Assembly (NCBI RefSeq): GCF_030698145.1
Contig: NZ_JAUYNW010000094.1
Coordinates: forward strand, 1-64,000
Length of the DNA: 64,000 nt
Source: Phenylobacterium sp.
GTDB taxonomy: Bacteria; Pseudomonadota; Alphaproteobacteria; Caulobacterales; Caulobacteraceae
Direction of reading: 5' to 3'
The position numbers were made by a program, and so were the translations under genes. Positions 47,436 through 55,433 of the stretch are shown here, piece by piece. The notes below the pieces were generated by a model that was given only the letters and a program-made list of their open reading frames with translations, was not told the DNA's origin and made no database searches. Positions within the stretch are counted from its first letter, which is position 1, and each line of letters begins with the position of its first letter.

Positions 47436-48794
47436 TCAGTGCGGCACGTAGGTCCGCAGCACGTCCTCGATGATCCGTTCCAGCTGGCCCAGCGTGTTGC
47501 AGGTCTTGGCGACGTGGCAGAAGCGCTCGTAGCGGTGCATGACGCTGTCGCCCTGGCTCCAGTAGCTCTCGGGCTCGGGATTGAGCCAGATCACCGACCG
47601 GGCGCGCTTGTGGATCGTGGCCATCAAGTCCATGCGCGGGTCGGCGTAGTTAGACCGGCCGTCGCCCAGGAAGATCACCGTGGTGTGGCGGTCGACATGG
47701 TCCAGGTGGTTCTCGCAGAAGTCCTCCAGCGACTTGCCGTAGTCGGTCTGCTGGAAGCCGATGCGCTTCAGCACCTCGAAGATCGCCACGTCCACATGCT
47801 CGTCGTCGAGGATGTCGTTGACGCTGATCAGGCGGCCTGAGAAGGCGTAGGCCTCCAGCCGGTCGACCACCTCGTTCAGCGAATAGAGGAAGGTCAGCAG
47901 GAACTGCGCCGCCGCGGCCACCGACTTGGAGACGTCGCAGATGCAGACGATGGACGGCTTGTCGATCTTCTGGGTCTTCCAGAGAATCTCGAAGGGCATG
48001 CCGCCGTAGGGCATGGATTTCCGCAGGGTCTTGCGGATGTCCATGTGGCCCTTGCGGGCCCGGTTGCGGCGGCGCGAATAGCGGTCGGCCAGGCGCTTGG
48101 CCATCTTCTTGACCAGGGCCTGCATCATGGCCTGGTCGACAGGATCGATGCCGCCCTCGGCGTTCAGCGCCTTCCGCGCCAGCAGCTCCTCGCGCAGCAT
48201 CCGCCCCGAGCCCGAGGCGTAAAGGCTGTGCTGGCGCTCCACATAGCGCTGGGCCTCGGCGGCCAGGCGGCGCTTGCCCGCCTCGAGCCGGTCGGCCGCA
48301 TCGCCCCCGCCTTCCAGACGCCGCGCGGCGGAGATGATCGACTCGATCTCGGCCAGGCCCATCTCCTCCAGCAACCGGCGGCTCATGCGCGAGCGCTGGG
48401 TGGTCAGGCGGATCTGCGAGACCTGGGCGCGTTCGGCGGCCTCCTCCATGGCCTGGGCCAGGCCCGTGGCGTCGCCCTCCATGATCATGCGGGTGAGATC
48501 GGACTCTGCGGCCTCCGGCGGCAGTCCTTCCATCGGGTCGCCGTCGCCGCGCTCGGGCGGCGGCTCGGCCGGGGTGAGCGCGTCGCGGGCGAAGAAGGTG
48601 TCGAACACGTCGTCGAACCGGACCACCTCGTCCGAGGTCTTGGCCAGGGTCGCGCACAGGGCGTCCTTGAACAGCTCTCGGTCGGAGAAGCCGACGGCGG
48701 CCACCGTGCGGTGGGCGTCGATGGCCTCGGCCGGCGAGACTTTCACATCCGCGGCCCGCAGGGCCCGGAAGAAGTCCTCCATGGCGTCCTGCAT
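47436..48794 (-). CDS. VWA-domain protein, CoxE-like
   Basis: 452 residues. The C-terminal von Willebrand A domain has the metal site CICDVSKSVAAAAQFLLTFL (D-x-S-x-S), then TVIFLGDGRSNYADPRMDLM. The N-terminal half is helical and charged (SPAEAIDAHRTVAAVGFSDR). This is the CoxE type, working with a MoxR-class AAA+ protein (gene just upstream, four bases away) to insert or mature metal centres such as the Mo-Cu site of CO dehydrogenase. A molybdenum hydroxylase lies 5 kb away, so maturation of that enzyme is one possible job. Confidence 0.88.
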   Translation of the reverse strand: MQDAMEDFFRALRAADVKVSPAEAIDAHRTVAAVGFSDRELFKDALCATLAKTSDEVVRFDDVFDTFFARDALTPAEPPPERGDGDPMEGLPPEAAESDLTRMIMEGDATGLAQAMEEAAERAQVSQIRLTTQRSRMSRRLLEEMGLAEIESIISAARRLEGGGDAADRLEAGKRRLAAEAQRYVERQHSLYASGSGRMLREELLARKALNAEGGIDPVDQAMMQALVKKMAKRLADRYSRRRNRARKGHMDIRKTLRKSMPYGGMPFEILWKTQKIDKPSIVCICDVSKSVAAAAQFLLTFLYSLNEVVDRLEAYAFSGRLISVNDILDDEHVDVAIFEVLKRIGFQQTDYGKSLEDFCENHLDHVDRHTTVIFLGDGRSNYADPRMDLMATIHKRARSVIWLNPEPESYWSQGDSVMHRYERFCHVAKTCNTLGQLERIIEDVLRTYVPH

Positions 48795-48798
48795 GGCC

Positions 48799-49761
48799 CT
48801 AGCCCACCGGGCGGCGGATCAACTCGACGATCTGCGGCTCCACCGCGGCGATGTCCTGTTCGAACTTGAGCAGGACGTTGAGCGTGTCGCGCACCACCTC
48901 GCCATCCAGGCTGGAGGCGTTGAGCAGGATCAGAGCGCGGGCCCAGTCGACGGTCTCGGAGATCGAGGGTGACTTGCGCAGGTCCAGCGTGCGCAGGGAC
49001 TGGACGAAGGCCACCAGCTCGGCGGTGAGCGTGGCTTCGATGTCGGGAACCCGGCTGGCGACGATCCGCCGCTCCAGGGCCGCGTCGGGCAGGGGGATGT
49101 GCAGGTGCAGGCAGCGGCGCTTGAGCGCATCGCCCAGGTCGCGGACATTGTTGGAGGTCAGGAACACCAGCGGCGGAGTCTTGGCCTTCATCACCCCTAG
49201 CTCGGGGATGGAGACCTGATAGGCCGACAGGACCTCCAGCAGGAAGGCCTCGAAGGCCTCATCCGACTTGTCGATCTCGTCGATCAGCAGGACGCAGCCG
49301 TCGTCCTCGCGCAGCGCCTTCATCAGCGGGCGCGGCTCCAGGAAGGGCTCGGAAAAGAACAGGTCGCCCATGCCGTGCAGCCGGTCCATGGCGTCGTCCA
49401 TGTCCTTGGCGTCGGAGAGCTGTTCGCCCATCCGGTCCTTGAGGATCTGGGTGTAGAGGAGCTGCTTGCCGTACTTCCACTCGTACAGGGCCTTGGACTC
49501 GTCCAGGCCCTCGTAGCACTGCATGCGGATCAGCGGCAGGCCGAGCAGGGTGGCCGTCGACAGCGCCAGTTCGGTCTTGCCGACTCCGGCCGAGCCTTCG
49601 ACCAGGATGGGCTTCTGCAGGTGGACGGCCATGTAGAGGGCGGTGGCGATGCGGCGCGAGGCGATATAGCCGACGCTGGCCAGGCCCTGGATGAGTGCCT
49701 CCACCGAGGCGAGGTGGTCGGTGGACGCGGCGGGGACCGCCACGGTCGGGGAAATGGTCAA
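48799..49761 (-). CDS. MoxR-family AAA+ ATPase (CoxD-like)
   Basis: 320 residues. Walker A GSAGVGKTELALSTATLLGL near residue 57, Walker B CVLLIDEIDKSDEAFEAFLL, sensor 1 (VFLTSNNVRDLGDALKRRCL with Asn and the arginine finger region). MoxR proteins are chaperone-like ATPases that act with a VWA partner; here the partner is the CoxE-like gene four bases downstream. N-terminal MTISPTVAVPAASTDHLA is the likely start. Cytosolic. Confidence 0.9.
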   Translation of the reverse strand: MTISPTVAVPAASTDHLASVEALIQGLASVGYIASRRIATALYMAVHLQKPILVEGSAGVGKTELALSTATLLGLPLIRMQCYEGLDESKALYEWKYGKQLLYTQILKDRMGEQLSDAKDMDDAMDRLHGMGDLFFSEPFLEPRPLMKALREDDGCVLLIDEIDKSDEAFEAFLLEVLSAYQVSIPELGVMKAKTPPLVFLTSNNVRDLGDALKRRCLHLHIPLPDAALERRIVASRVPDIEATLTAELVAFVQSLRTLDLRKSPSISETVDWARALILLNASSLDGEVVRDTLNVLLKFEQDIAAVEPQIVELIRRPVG

Positions 49762-49919: not shown

Positions 49920-50543
49920 ATGCGCATTCTCGCGGCCCTTATCGCCGGGCTGCTGGCCGCGACGCCCGCCCTGGCCGGCGACCTGGCTGTCAGCCTGAAG
50001 ACCTCGTCCGGCAAGCCGGTGACGGATGCGGTGGTGATGGTCACGCCCCAGGGCGGAAGCCCCGCGCCGAGGTCGGCCGGGTCCTACCGCATGGCGCAGC
50101 AGGGCATGCAGTTCCAGCCCTTCGTCCTGATCGTGCCGGTGGGGGCCGACGTGGCCTTTCCCAACTTCGATCCGGTGCTGCACCACGTCTATTCGTTCTC
50201 GGCCGCCAAGCCGTTCGAGCTGAAGCTGTACGGCCGCGACCAGAGCCGCCGTGTCCGCTTCGACAAGGCCGGCGTGGTGGCTGTCGGCTGCAACATCCAT
50301 GACGCCATGTCGGCCTTCATCCGGGTGGTCGACACCGCCCATGCGGTGAAGACCGACGCCGCCGGCGCCGCCGTGCTGGCCGGCCTTCCGGCCGGACCCG
50401 CCATCCTGACCGTCTGGCATCCCTATCTGAAAGGCGCGCGGAACGAGACCGTGCGGACCATCGCGATCCCGGCCGCCGGCGTCGCGCGCCAGGCCCTGGT
50501 GGTCGACCTGCGCGCCCCGCCGATGCGGCACGGGCCGTACTGA
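49920..50543 (+). CDS. periplasmic cupredoxin-like (methylamine-utilisation-type) protein
   Basis: 207 residues from the ATG at 49920 (ILAALIAGLLAATPALAGDL, signal peptide). A type 1 copper set appears: VAFPNFDPVLHHVYSFS (His), then VVAVGCNIHDAMSAFIRVVD (Cys, His and Met in C-N-I-H-D-x-M), followed by a carboxypeptidase-regulatory-like strand region (AAVLAGLPAGPAILTVWHPY). Known in several proteobacteria as methylamine utilisation protein MauA/MauL-like, next to GGDEF/EAL proteins. Here such an EAL protein starts two bases after the stop, so the copper protein may feed a signal to it. Confidence 0.85.
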   Translation: MRILAALIAGLLAATPALAGDLAVSLKTSSGKPVTDAVVMVTPQGGSPAPRSAGSYRMAQQGMQFQPFVLIVPVGADVAFPNFDPVLHHVYSFSAAKPFELKLYGRDQSRRVRFDKAGVVAVGCNIHDAMSAFIRVVDTAHAVKTDAAGAAVLAGLPAGPAILTVWHPYLKGARNETVRTIAIPAAGVARQALVVDLRAPPMRHGPY

Positions 50544-50544
50544 C

Positions 50545-52923
50545 ATGGTCTGGATCGAGCCCATCGCCCGGCGGCTGACCGGCTTCCGGCGTCTGCGCAC
50601 CAAGCTGACCGTGCTCTATGCCGCGCTGTTCGGCATGGCGCTGCTGTTGGTGTCCGGCGCGGCCTATTCGGCCATCAACGGCGCGGCCCAGCGCCAGGTG
50701 CGCGACGAGCTGACCGCCTCGGGAACGGTGTTCGACCGCATCTGGTCGCTGCGATCCGAACAACTCCAGCAGGGCGCGGCGCTGCTGTCGCGGGACTTCG
50801 GGTTCCGCGAGGCGGTGGCCACCGGCGACGACGCCACCATCGTCTCGGCCATGGAGAACCTGCGCCAGAGGCTGCAGATCGACCTGGCCTTCATCGTGGG
50901 CGTCGACGGGACGATCACCGCCGCCAAACCCGCGACCCTACAGCCGAACGCCGACGCCCTGGTCGAGGCCATGTACGCGCAGGAAAAGCCCAGCGGCGTC
51001 TTCGTGCTGGACGGCACGCCCTACCAGATGATCGCCGCGCCGATCCTGTCGCCCGACCTGATGGGCTGGGTGGTGTTCGCCGCTCGCCTGGACCAGCGCG
51101 AGATGTCGGCCCTGGAGAAGCTGTCGGCCATCCCGTTGGACGCCAGCGTCCTGCACCGCGACGGCAAGGGCTGGAGTTCCGAGCTGGCCGGCGGTCGCGC
51201 GGAACAGGTCAGGCTTGGCGGGTTCATCGACGGCGCCCTCGCCGCCAAGACCAAGGCGCCGCGCACGCTCGACGCGCCGCAGGGCGCTTCCCTGGCGCTC
51301 GTCAAATCGCTGCCCGCGCTCACCGGCATAGCCAATCTTACCGACAAAGAGGGCGCCGTGCTCGTGCTCAGCTATCCGCTGGCCCGGGCGCTGGCGCCCT
51401 ATAAGCCCCTGCTGGCGACTATCGCTGGGGTCGGCCTGCTGGGCCTGGTGCTGGTGGTGGCGGGAAGCTGGGCCCTGGCGCGCAGCGTCACCCGTCCGAT
51501 CTCGGCCCTGGCCGCCGCGGCCAACCGCCTGCGCGAAGGCCAGTACGGCCAGGTGGCGGTCGAGAGCCAGGATGAGATCGGCCACCTGGCCGAGAGCTTC
51601 AACGTCATGGCCACAGAGATCCGCGAGCGCGAGCGGCGGATCACCCACCTGGCCCTGCACGACCCCGAGACCCACCTGCCCAACCGCCTCTCCCTGGAGC
51701 AGGCGATCGCGGGGCTGGCGGCGACCGACGGCGGCGGCCTCTATGCGGCGCTGCTGGGGGTCGACCGCTTCGCCCACGTGCGCGGCGCCATCGGCTACGC
51801 CCTGGCCGCCCAGGCGATCCGCGAGGTCGGCGAACGGCTGGCCGGCCTGCAGCCCCAGGCCTTCGTGGCGCGGATCTCCACCGACGTCCTGGGCATGGTC
51901 TTCGAGGCGGCCGACGACGACGCGGCCCAGACCAGGATGGCCCGGCTGTTGCGCGAGCTGGAGCAGCCGCTGCAGATCGGCGGCGACGCCATCGACGTGG
52001 CCCTCACGGTGGGGCTCTCGGCCTTCACGCCGGGCGAGCCTGGCGGTGCGGCCATCGAGCGTGCCAATATCGGCCTGGACCAGGCCCGAGCCGCCCGCAG
52101 GAAGCTCGCCTTCTTCGACGCCGAGGCCTATGGCGACCCCTCGTCGAACCTGGCCCTGATGAGCGGCATGCTCTGGGCCCTGCGGTCGGGTCACATCGAA
52201 CTCTATCACCAGCCGAAGTACGACCTGCGGACCCGCGGCGTGAACGGCGTCGAGGCCCTGGTGCGTTGGCGTCACCCGACGCGGGGGATGCTGCGGCCGG
52301 ACCTGTTCATCCCCATGGCCGAGGAGACCGGCCATATCCGCACCCTCACCGACTGGGTGCTGAAGCAGGCCATCGCCGACCAGACCAAGATGCGCCGCGC
52401 GGGCCATGAGGTGGAGATGTCGGTCAACATCTCCGGCCGCCTGCTGGGCGACACCGACTTCGCCGACTTCGTCGACCGCACCGTGGGCGAGGCGAGCGGC
52501 AAGCTGTGCTTCGAGATCACCGAGACCGCGGTCATCGAGAACCCCGACATGGCGCTGGAGATCCTCGACCGCTTCCGCGCGGCGGGCATCAACATCTCCA
52601 TAGACGACTTCGGATCGGGCCTGTCGTCCCTGGCCTATCTGAAGCAGATCAAGGGTCACGAACTGAAGATCGACCGCTCGCTGATCACTGACCTGACCGA
52701 GAGCCAGCGCGACGCCCTGATCGTCCGCTCAACCATCGACCTGGCCCACAGTCTGGGCCTGAAGGTCACCGCCGAGGGCGTCGAGACCGCCAACGCCTTC
52801 CAGCTGTTGGCGGCGATGGGGTGCGACAATGTGCAAGGCTATCTGATCGCCAAACCCATGCCGTTCAACGAACTCTTGATGTTTCTCAACGAGGATCGGG
52901 ACACGGAACGCAGCTACGGCTGA
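50545..52923 (+). CDS. membrane sensor with degenerate GGDEF and active-looking EAL domain
   Basis: 792 residues. Membrane helix 1 (YAALFGMALLLVSGAAYSA) is followed by a periplasmic dCache-like sensor, helix 2 near residues 293-312, HAMP (PISALAAAANRLREGQYGQV), a GGDEF fold whose signature is lost (RISTDVLGMVFE near residue 446 stands where R-x-G-G-D-E-F should be), and a C-terminal EAL domain: VNGVEALVRWRHPT near 570, FEITETA, SIDDFGSGLSSLAYL, LKIDRSLI and VTAEGVET. So it should degrade cyclic di-GMP and not make it. Second gene of a cupredoxin/EAL/barrel operon. Confidence 0.92.
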   Translation: MVWIEPIARRLTGFRRLRTKLTVLYAALFGMALLLVSGAAYSAINGAAQRQVRDELTASGTVFDRIWSLRSEQLQQGAALLSRDFGFREAVATGDDATIVSAMENLRQRLQIDLAFIVGVDGTITAAKPATLQPNADALVEAMYAQEKPSGVFVLDGTPYQMIAAPILSPDLMGWVVFAARLDQREMSALEKLSAIPLDASVLHRDGKGWSSELAGGRAEQVRLGGFIDGALAAKTKAPRTLDAPQGASLALVKSLPALTGIANLTDKEGAVLVLSYPLARALAPYKPLLATIAGVGLLGLVLVVAGSWALARSVTRPISALAAAANRLREGQYGQVAVESQDEIGHLAESFNVMATEIRERERRITHLALHDPETHLPNRLSLEQAIAGLAATDGGGLYAALLGVDRFAHVRGAIGYALAAQAIREVGERLAGLQPQAFVARISTDVLGMVFEAADDDAAQTRMARLLRELEQPLQIGGDAIDVALTVGLSAFTPGEPGGAAIERANIGLDQARAARRKLAFFDAEAYGDPSSNLALMSGMLWALRSGHIELYHQPKYDLRTRGVNGVEALVRWRHPTRGMLRPDLFIPMAEETGHIRTLTDWVLKQAIADQTKMRRAGHEVEMSVNISGRLLGDTDFADFVDRTVGEASGKLCFEITETAVIENPDMALEILDRFRAAGINISIDDFGSGLSSLAYLKQIKGHELKIDRSLITDLTESQRDALIVRSTIDLAHSLGLKVTAEGVETANAFQLLAAMGCDNVQGYLIAKPMPFNELLMFLNEDRDTERSYG

Positions 52924-52934
52924 CGGGGGTGAAT

Positions 52935-54185
52935 GTGTCCATCCGACGGGCGGGCCTGGCGGCGCTCTTCCTCGCGCTCGGCGCCGGTCCGGCGCGGGCC
53001 GCGCCCGACCTGTTGTCTCCAGAAACCTTTTCCGGACTGGTGGAGCTGCGGCTGGCCGCGGCGGACGGCGAGCGGTCCTGGCTCGACGGCGGCTTCGGCA
53101 AGACCGGCGCCTCGGGCGGCGGGTCGGACTGGGCCGCGCGGCCGGATCTGTCCCAGGCCCTGATCCAGTGGAAGCCCCGGCTTTCCTTCTCGCTCGCCGC
53201 CGTGGTGAGCGCCCAGGTGCAGCCCGACGTCGACCCCGCCTTTGATCTGGGAGAGGCCTATCTGACCTGGCGGGCGGCGCCCAACCGCCTGGCGCGGTTT
53301 TCGGCCCGGGCCGGCCTCTTCTATCCGCCGGTCAGCCAGGAGCATGAGGGGGTCGGCTGGACCACCCCCGACGTGCTGAGCGCCTCGGCCATCGGAAGCT
53401 GGATCGGCGAGGAGGTGAAGGTCGCGGGGCTGGAGCTCACCGCCACCCGCGCGCTCGGCGACCACGAGGTTTCGGCGACGGCGGCGGCCTTCGGGGCCAA
53501 CGACACCTCTGGGACCCTGCTCAGCTTTCGCGGCTGGGCGCTGCATGGCGTGCGGACCGGCGCCTCGACCGATTTCCCGCTGCCGGCGCTGAGCCCCTTC
53601 ATGCGCACGCGCCAGGCGCCGATCTCCACGCCGGTCGGCGAACTGGACAACCGCGCCGGCTATTACGGCCGCCTGGCCTGGCGTCCGCCCGTCCCGATCG
53701 AAGTCTCGGCCTTCTACTACGACAACGCCGGCGACCGGACCTCGGTGGAGGCCCTGCAATGGGCCTGGGAGACGCGGTTCACAACGCTTGGCCTGGTCTG
53801 GTCCCTGGACGAGGTCACCACGCTTCGCGCCCAGGTCCTGCGCGGCGAGACCCTGATGGGCTTCCGCTACCAGGCGCGGCACCGCTGGATCGACATGGGC
53901 TACGCCTCGGCCCATGTCTCGGCGGTCCGCCGGTTTGGCGACCACGCCCTGACCCTGCGCGTCGATGGGTTCGAGACCAACGACCGCACCCTGCAGGCCA
54001 TCGACAACAACGACGAGACCGGCTGGGCCCTGACCGCGGCCTGGCGGCACAGGCTCTCGCCCCGCGCCGACCTGCTGTTCGAGGGACTGCACGTCAGCTC
54101 CGACCGGCCCTCGCGCATCTATGGCGGGGTGGCGCCCGACCAGGACCAGACGGTCCTGCAGTCGGCCCTGAGGTTGTCGTTCTAG
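52935..54185 (+). CDS. outer membrane barrel protein, porin-like
   Basis: About 416 residues from the GTG at 52935 (an alternative GTG at 52929 is two codons earlier). A signal peptide (GLAALFLALGAGPARAAP) precedes a chain rich in alternating aromatic strands (FSLAAVVSAQVQPDVDPAFD, ARFSARAGLFYPPVSQEHEG, FDTEAELGV-like repeats are absent) and ends with LQSALRLSF, the terminal Phe expected of a barrel. Not a TonB receptor: no plug. It follows the EAL gene by 11 bases, so it shares its operon. Specificity unknown. Confidence 0.75.
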   Translation: MSIRRAGLAALFLALGAGPARAAPDLLSPETFSGLVELRLAAADGERSWLDGGFGKTGASGGGSDWAARPDLSQALIQWKPRLSFSLAAVVSAQVQPDVDPAFDLGEAYLTWRAAPNRLARFSARAGLFYPPVSQEHEGVGWTTPDVLSASAIGSWIGEEVKVAGLELTATRALGDHEVSATAAAFGANDTSGTLLSFRGWALHGVRTGASTDFPLPALSPFMRTRQAPISTPVGELDNRAGYYGRLAWRPPVPIEVSAFYYDNAGDRTSVEALQWAWETRFTTLGLVWSLDEVTTLRAQVLRGETLMGFRYQARHRWIDMGYASAHVSAVRRFGDHALTLRVDGFETNDRTLQAIDNNDETGWALTAAWRHRLSPRADLLFEGLHVSSDRPSRIYGGVAPDQDQTVLQSALRLSF

Positions 54186-54191
54186 GCCGCC

Positions 54192-55277
54192 CTATCCCAG
54201 GCCGTAGGGCCGGTAGGGGCCGGCGATGAGCTGTTCGAACACGCCCATGCCCGACTGCTGAGCCTCACCTGGCAGGTTCATGGTCACGCGGCTTAGCGCC
54301 TGGATGTGGATGTTCTCCGGCGCGGCCATGTTGACGGTGGCCAGGTCGATGTCCTCGCGCTCCACCACCAGTTCACCCTTGTAGCCGCCATGCCGCCAGG
54401 CGGGGTGGCCATAGCCGATGCCGCGCATCAGGAAGGTCAGGAACGGCTCGAACCGGATGCTGGCCGAGCCCTGGGCCAGGGGCACGTTCAAGGTCCCGCC
54501 GCGGGCATGGCGGGTCCCGGCGATCAGCGAGACGTCCTCCATCACCGCGTGCTCGGTCTCGTGGAAGCCGTCGGGGCCCGCGCCGTCCGGAGCGATCACC
54601 GCCCGGGTGTTCCAGGCCTTGCCGTCCGGGTCGGCATTGATGTGGAAGAACACGCTGCGGTCGGCGAAGTTGAGCGGGGTCCACTGCCAGAAGAAGCCGC
54701 CGATGGTCTGCGGCACGGCGGGTTGCGGGTCGGGCGCCCCGACCGGACGCACGCCCCAGGAGCGGTCCCGGGTGCCGACCGTGCCCGCGGCCAGATCCCG
54801 GCGCGCCCCGTCGATCTCGATCCAGCCCGTGGCCCGCACGTTCTGGGTCAGGCGGGTGTAGTCCATGAAGGCGCGGGGGCCGTTGCGGCGGATGAAGCGC
54901 GGCTCCTCGACCGGGAAGCTGCGGCCCTCGAAGACGATCTCGGCGGCGAAGCCGTTGGACGGCTCCACCGTCACCTTCAGCTTCTGCAGCGGCTCGAGGA
55001 CCTCGATGCGGATCGGGCCGCAGGTGAGGTCCATGCGCTCCATATGCAACACGCGGCTGGCATGGAGGCAGTACTGGACGCCGTTGCGGATCACCGAGAA
55101 ATGCGCGTCGGCGATGTTCAGGTGCGGATAGACCCCGAAGGCCGCGGCGAAGAACTCCGTCCCGTCCGGGTCGTAGCCGTTGAAGAAGTAGCGGTCGTAG
55201 AAATTGCGGTCGGTGCCGGAGAAGGCGATCGGCTCAGGCGTCTGGTGGATTGGAAAATCGTCGGCCTTGGTCAGCAT
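54192..55277 (-). CDS. hypothetical protein, beta-rich, next to P450
   Basis: 361 residues from the ATG at 55277, supported by GGAGG ten bases ahead; the frame extends upstream without a usable start. The sequence is beta-rich with many Trp and His (GFFWQWTPLNFADRSVFFHI, HGGYKGELVVEREDIDLA), a layout like that of DUF7064/7065-type and hydroxyneurosporene-synthase-like barrel proteins. I cannot name the reaction. It is divergent from the P450 gene with a 156-base AT-containing promoter gap, suggesting shared control and a role in the same pathway. Confidence 0.65.
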   Translation of the reverse strand: MLTKADDFPIHQTPEPIAFSGTDRNFYDRYFFNGYDPDGTEFFAAAFGVYPHLNIADAHFSVIRNGVQYCLHASRVLHMERMDLTCGPIRIEVLEPLQKLKVTVEPSNGFAAEIVFEGRSFPVEEPRFIRRNGPRAFMDYTRLTQNVRATGWIEIDGARRDLAAGTVGTRDRSWGVRPVGAPDPQPAVPQTIGGFFWQWTPLNFADRSVFFHINADPDGKAWNTRAVIAPDGAGPDGFHETEHAVMEDVSLIAGTRHARGGTLNVPLAQGSASIRFEPFLTFLMRGIGYGHPAWRHGGYKGELVVEREDIDLATVNMAAPENIHIQALSRVTMNLPGEAQQSGMGVFEQLIAGPYRPYGLG

Positions 55278-55433
55278 TGGGGCGTCCTCCGGAGCAGCGA
55301 TCTGTGGTCTATGTATTGCGACCGCGCCTGTCGGCGCAGTATCAAGTGAACAAAGATAACAAGACAAGGGAGGACGTTCTGCTCTGACGCCACGTAAGGT
55401 TACGGGGTGATTTCAATGGGCTGAGCGACGTCA

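What the first reader, a model, noticed from the sequence alone, without database searches (positions are those of the whole stretch)
49920..54185. Cupredoxin - EAL sensor - outer-membrane barrel operon
A periplasmic type 1 copper protein, a membrane Cache-HAMP-GGDEF*-EAL protein with destroyed GGDEF motif, and a barrel protein are packed within a few bases of each other. A plausible but undescribed pathway is periplasmic redox or copper sensing relayed to cyclic di-GMP breakdown, with the barrel as uptake or anchor partner.
Basis: partly seen in the sequence, partly recalled or inferred. Interest (0 to 1): 0.7.

Follow-up and report, generated by a model that had tools for sequence, protein, structure and literature searches.

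The report
Copper protein feeding envelope signalling receptors
Next to each other sit genes for a periplasmic copper protein, a membrane receptor that probably breaks down the messenger cyclic di-GMP, and an outer-membrane barrel; across bacteria the copper protein stays beside receptors of this sensor type even when the receptor's output or the barrel is exchanged, which points to an uncharacterised way of sensing conditions in the cell envelope.

Summary
In detail: a signal-peptide cupredoxin (49920-50543), a dCache-HAMP-degenerate GGDEF-EAL protein (50545-52923) and a porin-like barrel (52929-54185), with gaps of 1 and 5 bases. The pairing is widespread. The gene directly after the cupredoxin carries the dCache sensor domain in 76 of 80 related loci, 20 of 30 phylum-sample loci and 20 of 20 order-sample loci. 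Its output is usually EAL, but elsewhere it is a class III cyclase, a histidine kinase or a Ser/Thr kinase. What these receptors share is the sensor half, so the cupredoxin most likely serves the sensor rather than c-di-GMP as such. The copper ligands are invariant in 186 of 186 aligned cupredoxins. The outer-membrane partner is exchangeable too: most loci carry DUF3034 plus a truncated haemoglobin, a minority the window-type barrel, and no scored locus both; the partner switches at least six times by parsimony on two trees. Best reading: an uncharacterised trans-envelope sensing module in which a type 1 copper protein is the periplasmic input of dCache-HAMP receptors. Contact, signal and enzyme activity are inferred. 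Ten text searches found no description.

The parts
49920..50543 (+). Periplasmic cupredoxin, 207 aa: signal peptide, type 1 copper domain with H88, C124, H127, M130, then a C-terminal beta-sandwich (CarboxypepD_reg-like, below cut-off); many relatives are annotated 'methylamine utilization protein'
50545..52923 (+). Inner-membrane receptor, 792 aa: TM - dCache_3 - TM - HAMP - degenerate GGDEF (STDVL) - EAL with full catalytic set; predicted c-di-GMP phosphodiesterase
   Evidence: TM helices read from the sequence, not computed
52929..54185 (+). Outer-membrane porin-like beta-barrel, 418 aa with signal peptide; family without Pfam or NCBIfam model

Best explanation
The operon is one version of a widespread trans-envelope sensing module. 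A periplasmic type 1 copper protein is the dedicated input of an inner-membrane receptor with a dCache sensor and HAMP relay. The receptor's output varies between lineages: EAL in the window and in most loci, class III cyclase, histidine kinase or Ser/Thr kinase in others. An exchangeable outer-membrane part is often attached: the window's porin-like barrel, or DUF3034 with a truncated haemoglobin that looks exported. Proposed working (inferred): the cupredoxin changes state with periplasmic copper loading or redox conditions, in haemoglobin-bearing versions perhaps O2 or NO; one state binds the dCache domain and, through HAMP, sets EAL phosphodiesterase activity, hence c-di-GMP level and the choice between swimming and attachment; the barrel admits the stimulus or anchors the complex. 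In the window's protein the GGDEF domain cannot be a cyclase and can at most regulate. Shown here: gene order, domains, conserved active sites, pairing with dCache receptors across outputs, repeated exchange of the outer-membrane partner. Not shown: contact, signal, sign of regulation, enzyme activity.
For: The gene next to the cupredoxin scores with a dCache profile in 76 of 80, 20 of 30 and 20 of 20 loci, with an EAL domain in the same ORF in 70, 17 and 19 (the profile was built from linked proteins, so it is not independent). Independent Pfam scans of non-EAL neighbours give dCache_3 or CHASE4 above cut-off plus cyclase (L123, L343), histidine kinase (L225) and Ser/Thr kinase (L140, L308, L309, L313, L314, L317, L321); L050 (cyclase), L305 and L306 (kinases) match dCache_3 just below cut-off and L319 (kinase) has HAMP only. 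In a further 40 loci, 39 from the family of G154 and 1 from that of G064, 14 receptors have EAL, 15 are long or kinase receptors (9 of them scanned, all 9 with a kinase domain), 1 is a cyclase, 1 has CHASE4-HAMP scores but no output, 9 are unclear or lack a receptor. Copper ligands invariant in 186 of 186, including the cyclase (3), histidine kinase (3) and Ser/Thr kinase (16) groups at 27-42% identity to the window. EAL catalytic positions are kept wherever aligned save one E-to-D at 747. From the barrel's side: cupredoxin in 14 of 15 examined loci, the window included, cupredoxin plus EAL in 9. From DUF3034: trHb in 24 of 24, cupredoxin in 19, an EAL protein somewhere in the locus in 18.
Against: No Cys, His or Met of the dCache region is conserved at 85% or more, so copper or electrons are unlikely to pass directly to it. 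Co-divergence does not single out the cupredoxin: DUF3034 and trHb track dCache as well. Inter-protein mutual information is not concentrated on dCache (35 of the top 100 pairs against 30% of columns). Of the 30 phylum-sample loci 10 have no receptor next to the cupredoxin, 6 of them with matches of E 4e-25 or better (E-values). In 5 of 145 cupredoxins and in L334 the barrel is adjacent without a receptor, twice beside a TonB receptor and a PKHD-type dioxygenase gene, which suits metal handling. Four weaker relatives fetched later (L231, L236, L237, L238) also have no receptor directly following.
Confidence: 0.6

Rival explanations
1. The cupredoxin with its barrel (or DUF3034 and trHb) is a periplasmic metal or electron-handling unit; the receptor senses its own small ligand and is only co-expressed with it.
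For: Cupredoxin-barrel pairs without a receptor: L129 and L257 beside a TonB receptor and a 2OG-Fe(II)/PKHD gene, L126 beside a Redoxin gene, L262 beside an RND pump, L261 beside a thioesterase gene, and L334. DUF3034-trHb occurs without a cupredoxin in 5 of 24 loci. dCache domains usually bind small ligands (recalled).
Against: The next gene keeps the dCache sensor while the output changes among EAL, cyclase and kinases, which is better explained by the cupredoxin acting on that sensor. Neighbours of only four EAL-bearing barrel triads were scanned with Pfam; no other family recurred in them.
Confidence: 0.25
2. The cupredoxin is a copper carrier or chaperone and the operon answers copper stress.
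For: Invariant copper ligands.
Against: Sites with Cys, two His and axial Met are electron-transfer sites rather than delivery sites (recalled); among the four flanking genes scanned in the window none is a copper-resistance gene (other neighbours were not scanned).
Confidence: 0.08
3. Adjacency is shared ancestry only.
For: The cupredoxin and EAL trees agree in broad outline, so the pair is largely inherited together.
Against: Cupredoxins 36-56% identical to the window's apart from the Phenylobacterium one, rearranged gene order, exchanged outer-membrane partner and exchanged output domain, while cupredoxin and dCache receptor stay adjacent.
Confidence: 0.03

Closest known systems
YfiBNR of Pseudomonas aeruginosa
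   Same: Small periplasmic protein, outer-membrane protein and inner-membrane c-di-GMP enzyme with periplasmic sensor and HAMP (PMC2837407, passages seen)
   Different: YfiN is a cyclase with an intact GGDEF motif, here the output is EAL; YfiR is not a cupredoxin; YfiB is an OmpA/Pal-like lipoprotein, here a porin-like barrel or DUF3034
Receptors fed by a periplasmic binding protein, such as LuxP-LuxQ (recalled)
   Same: A soluble periplasmic protein encoded beside a transmembrane receptor and thought to gate it
   Different: The soluble protein is a type 1 copper protein, and the same pairing is met with several output types
Amicyanin, pseudoazurin, plastocyanin and the cupredoxin domain of Thermus NirK (6hbe)
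   Same: Cupredoxin fold; ligand loop C-x2-H-x2-M (that amicyanin has this spacing is recalled)
   Different: Has a second C-terminal domain and is encoded with a receptor instead of a dehydrogenase or reductase
DUF3034 - group 1 truncated haemoglobin - 'methylamine utilization protein' - EAL loci as annotated on Caballeronia and Novosphingobium plasmids
   Same: Homologous cupredoxin and EAL pair
   Different: DUF3034 and a globin in place of the barrel; the window genome gave no PF11231 hit (where no control genome rang; the same model rang in 24 of 299 genomes)
NCBIfam equivalog DibA
   Same: Best NCBIfam score of the window EAL protein
   Different: 303.6 bits against a cut-off of 980, so not a member

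Membership tests
Type 1 copper protein (cupredoxin) | Cupredoxin beta-sandwich | tested here: met
   AlphaFold pLDDT 91; Foldseek to 6hbe, 1id2, 5fc9 at E about 1e-5, TM by target 0.70 and 0.72 for the last two
Type 1 copper protein (cupredoxin) | His, Cys, His, Met ligands | tested here: met
   H88, C124, H127, M130 in 186 of 186 aligned rows of 100 bits or more
Type 1 copper protein (cupredoxin) | Binds copper, blue colour | not testable with these tools
   needs protein
EAL c-di-GMP phosphodiesterase | Conserved EAL catalytic and metal residues | tested here: met
   E570, N628, E657, D687, D688, K708, E744, E747, Q764 in the window and in every row without a gap save one D at 747; which positions matter is recalled from studied EAL domains
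EAL c-di-GMP phosphodiesterase | Hydrolyses c-di-GMP | not testable with these tools
   needs assay
Diguanylate cyclase (GGDEF) | GGDEF or GGEEF motif | tested here: not met
   STDVL in the window
YfiBNR | YfiR homologue | tested here: not met
   only a sub-threshold CarboxypepD_reg match in Pfam, none in NCBIfam
YfiBNR | OmpA/Pal-like lipoprotein | tested here: not met
   no Pfam match at the limit used; porin-like model
DUF3034 module | PF11231 gene in the locus | tested here: not met
   no hit in the window genome; DUF3034 and window barrel show no homology (hhalign probability 9.4)
Porins | Complete transmembrane barrel | tested here: inconclusive
   model pLDDT 55 from 4 sequences; best Foldseek matches are porins

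The most novel reading that the evidence does not exclude
A type 1 copper protein, normally an electron carrier, is a general periplasmic input for transmembrane receptors: it reads copper, redox, O2 or NO in the periplasm and gates dCache-HAMP receptors whose outputs have been exchanged in evolution (c-di-GMP breakdown, cyclic nucleotide synthesis, His and Ser/Thr phosphorylation), while exchangeable outer-membrane barrels and a disulphide-type globin tune what reaches it.
Probability: 0.4. Interest if true: 0.84.

Novelty: new variant of a known kind. Interest (0 to 1): 0.7.

Why it matters
The periplasmic signals of many c-di-GMP enzymes and dCache receptors are unknown. Here a clear copper or redox protein sits beside one sensor type with several different outputs, yet is annotated only as 'methylamine utilization protein'. 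That gives a direct test of whether copper proteins serve as signal inputs, and gives a context for DUF3034 and for a globin class with a conserved cysteine pair.

Tried and rejected
First count of EAL partners, corrected: one search used a whole-protein profile and gave 76 of 80, 19 of 30 and 20 of 20 'EAL' neighbours. Rechecking showed that L050, L140 and L225 (and L123) were dCache-HAMP receptors with other outputs, so I recounted by domain. This raised my odds that the cupredoxin acts on the sensor (main reading from 0.5 to 0.6, novel case from 0.27 to 0.4).

Direct copper or electron transfer to dCache: no conserved Cys, His or Met. Specific cupredoxin-dCache co-divergence: Spearman 0.73 against 0.28 for the EAL domain, but DUF3034 and trHb give 0.75 and 0.80 with dCache, so not specific. 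Mutual information: no convincing enrichment. Homology of DUF3034 and the barrel: rejected. Destroyed GGDEF as a family trait: rejected. The two globins of the window genome as hidden partners: neither is in the operon nor has the module globin's cysteine pair. Paper searches. One search listed 20 of 531 papers. Passages were seen of PMC3770913, PMC5847120, PMC8055020, PMC6515357, PMC7019866, PMC8832773, PMC9592645 and PMC12548924, none about this module; apart from PMC2837407 the other listed papers were seen in the listing only.

Full report
What is there. Three same-strand genes fill 49920-54185: a 207-aa exported cupredoxin, a 792-aa dCache_3-HAMP-GGDEF-EAL protein and a 418-aa exported barrel protein, with gaps of 1 and 5 bases. 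The genome appears to be a Caulobacterales MAG (nearest named relative: a Phenylobacterium MAG with an 83% identical cupredoxin and the same triad). It gave six EAL matches and one match to this cupredoxin.

Cupredoxin. Sequence matches to solved structures are weak (6hbe, E 0.013 alone, 2.3e-4 with a profile). The model is confident (pLDDT 91) and matches NirK's cupredoxin domain, amicyanin, pseudoazurin and plastocyanin. H88, C124, H127 and M130 are invariant in 186 of 186 rows of 100 bits or more. Residues 133-179 resemble CarboxypepD_reg below its cut-off.

EAL protein. In 123 linked rows the catalytic positions are kept wherever there is no gap, save one E-to-D at 747. One of these rows, L050, is in truth a cyclase. 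Of the remaining 122, the GGDEF motif scored intact in 56 by the pattern used. The dCache region has conserved D84, G86, F87, A90, T98, S101, R109 and P170.

Barrel. No Pfam, NCBIfam or PDB sequence match; a poor model from four sequences (pLDDT 55) with porins as best Foldseek matches. A profile found it in 15 of 398 sampled genomes, 16 places. Of 15 places examined, the window included, 14 have a cupredoxin and 9 a cupredoxin plus EAL; the 16th, a fragment, was not examined.

Which gene follows the cupredoxin. Frame A: 80 loci (a search that favours close relatives; several contigs are short). Frame B: 30 of the 40 places of the phylum sample (34 of 249 genomes matched). Frame C: 20 of the 31 places of the order sample (30 of 200 genomes matched, eight of them only weakly). 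At least two loci are in two frames, judged by equal contig length (L036 and L222, L078 and L133). By domain the next same-strand ORF has dCache in 76 of 80, 20 of 30 and 20 of 20; an EAL domain in the same ORF in 70, 17 and 19. In frame A two more are cut by a contig end (L029, L037) and three broken (L039, L041, L065). Frame B's ten without a receptor next door include six fairly close cupredoxins (L126, L129, L133, L134, L139, L142) and four distant ones; one of the latter (L144) has a HAMP-PAS hybrid histidine kinase with a 61-bit dCache profile score about 1 kb away.

Other outputs. L050, L123 and L343 have a class III cyclase, L225 a histidine kinase, L145 a PAS-containing hybrid histidine kinase (dCache only by a 27-bit profile score), and L140, L305, L306, L308, L309, L313, L314, L317, L319 and L321 a Ser/Thr kinase domain. 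Six more long receptors look alike but were not scanned (L307, L310, L311, L315, L316, L320). L312 has CHASE4 and HAMP scores just below cut-off and no output. These last sets come from the family of G154, where 67 of 117 genomes matched, and from that of G064 (9 of 74). In the family of G443, which gave the histidine kinase locus, 3 of 62 genomes matched and only G443 strongly. So the feature that stays with the cupredoxin is the dCache-HAMP half. This is the main ground for saying that the cupredoxin serves the sensor.

Outer-membrane partner. DUF3034 is in 62 of 80, 13 of 30 and 17 of 20 loci, trHb in 61, 13 and 17, the window-type barrel in 3, 6 and 2, both never. Gene order differs between lineages (divergent, upstream, or after EAL). 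Annotated plasmids show DUF3034, group 1 truncated haemoglobin, 'methylamine utilization protein' (or a carboxypeptidase-regulatory-like name) and EAL side by side; Pfam confirms PF11231. From the DUF3034 side, trHb was present in 24 of 24 main loci, cupredoxin in 19, EAL in 18. The globin has invariant C76, C83 and H94 in 104 rows. The Caballeronia copy begins with a signal-peptide-like stretch, but a crude test upstream of the domain was positive in only 52 of 103, so export of all copies is not shown. On the cupredoxin tree (89 rows) and the EAL tree (73 rows) the barrel/DUF3034 label needs at least six changes; well-supported branches force at least three for the cupredoxin-EAL-barrel label (quick trees, and the second gave long-branch warnings). 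G216 holds both types at separate loci, G213 a barrel triad and a DUF3034-trHb pair, G126 cupredoxin-barrel at one place and EAL-DUF3034-trHb at another.

Against. The co-divergence test failed its control, mutual information was flat, dCache has no conserved metal-type residues, and cupredoxin-barrel pairs without a receptor exist, two of them beside iron-type genes.

Comparison. It works most like YfiBNR (PMC2837407, passages seen) or a binding-protein-fed receptor (recalled). It is not YfiBNR by the tests made.

Verdict. A real, widespread gene module with no description found in ten text searches; the mechanism is inferred.

Noticed in passing
L305-L311, L313-L317, L319-L321: Cupredoxin genes followed by long receptors, nine of fifteen confirmed as HAMP or CHASE4 proteins with a Ser/Thr kinase domain: a receptor-kinase version of the module in one bacterial family.
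   Followed up: partly
L117 5486-5917; L118 4342-4905: Truncated haemoglobin beside DUF3034, with an invariant C-x6-C pair before the conserved histidine; a distinct, possibly exported globin class.
   Followed up: partly
L129 2663-7805; L257 2175-7134: Cupredoxin-barrel pair without a receptor beside a TonB-dependent receptor and a PKHD-type 2OG-Fe(II) dioxygenase gene, an iron-uptake-like setting.
   Followed up: partly
L041, L065, L039, L019: EAL (L041, L065, L039) or DUF3034 (L019) frames are broken into pieces; decay or sequencing error, not resolved.
   Followed up: no
window 47436-49761 (-): Divergent AAA ATPase and CoxE-like VWA protein pair directly upstream of the operon.
   Followed up: no
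window 54192-55367 (-): 391-aa protein without a Pfam match between the barrel gene and a cytochrome P450 gene (55434-56711).
   Followed up: no
L150 1471-2031 (-): The window genome carries an unlinked truncated haemoglobin with a twin-arginine-like leader.
   Followed up: no
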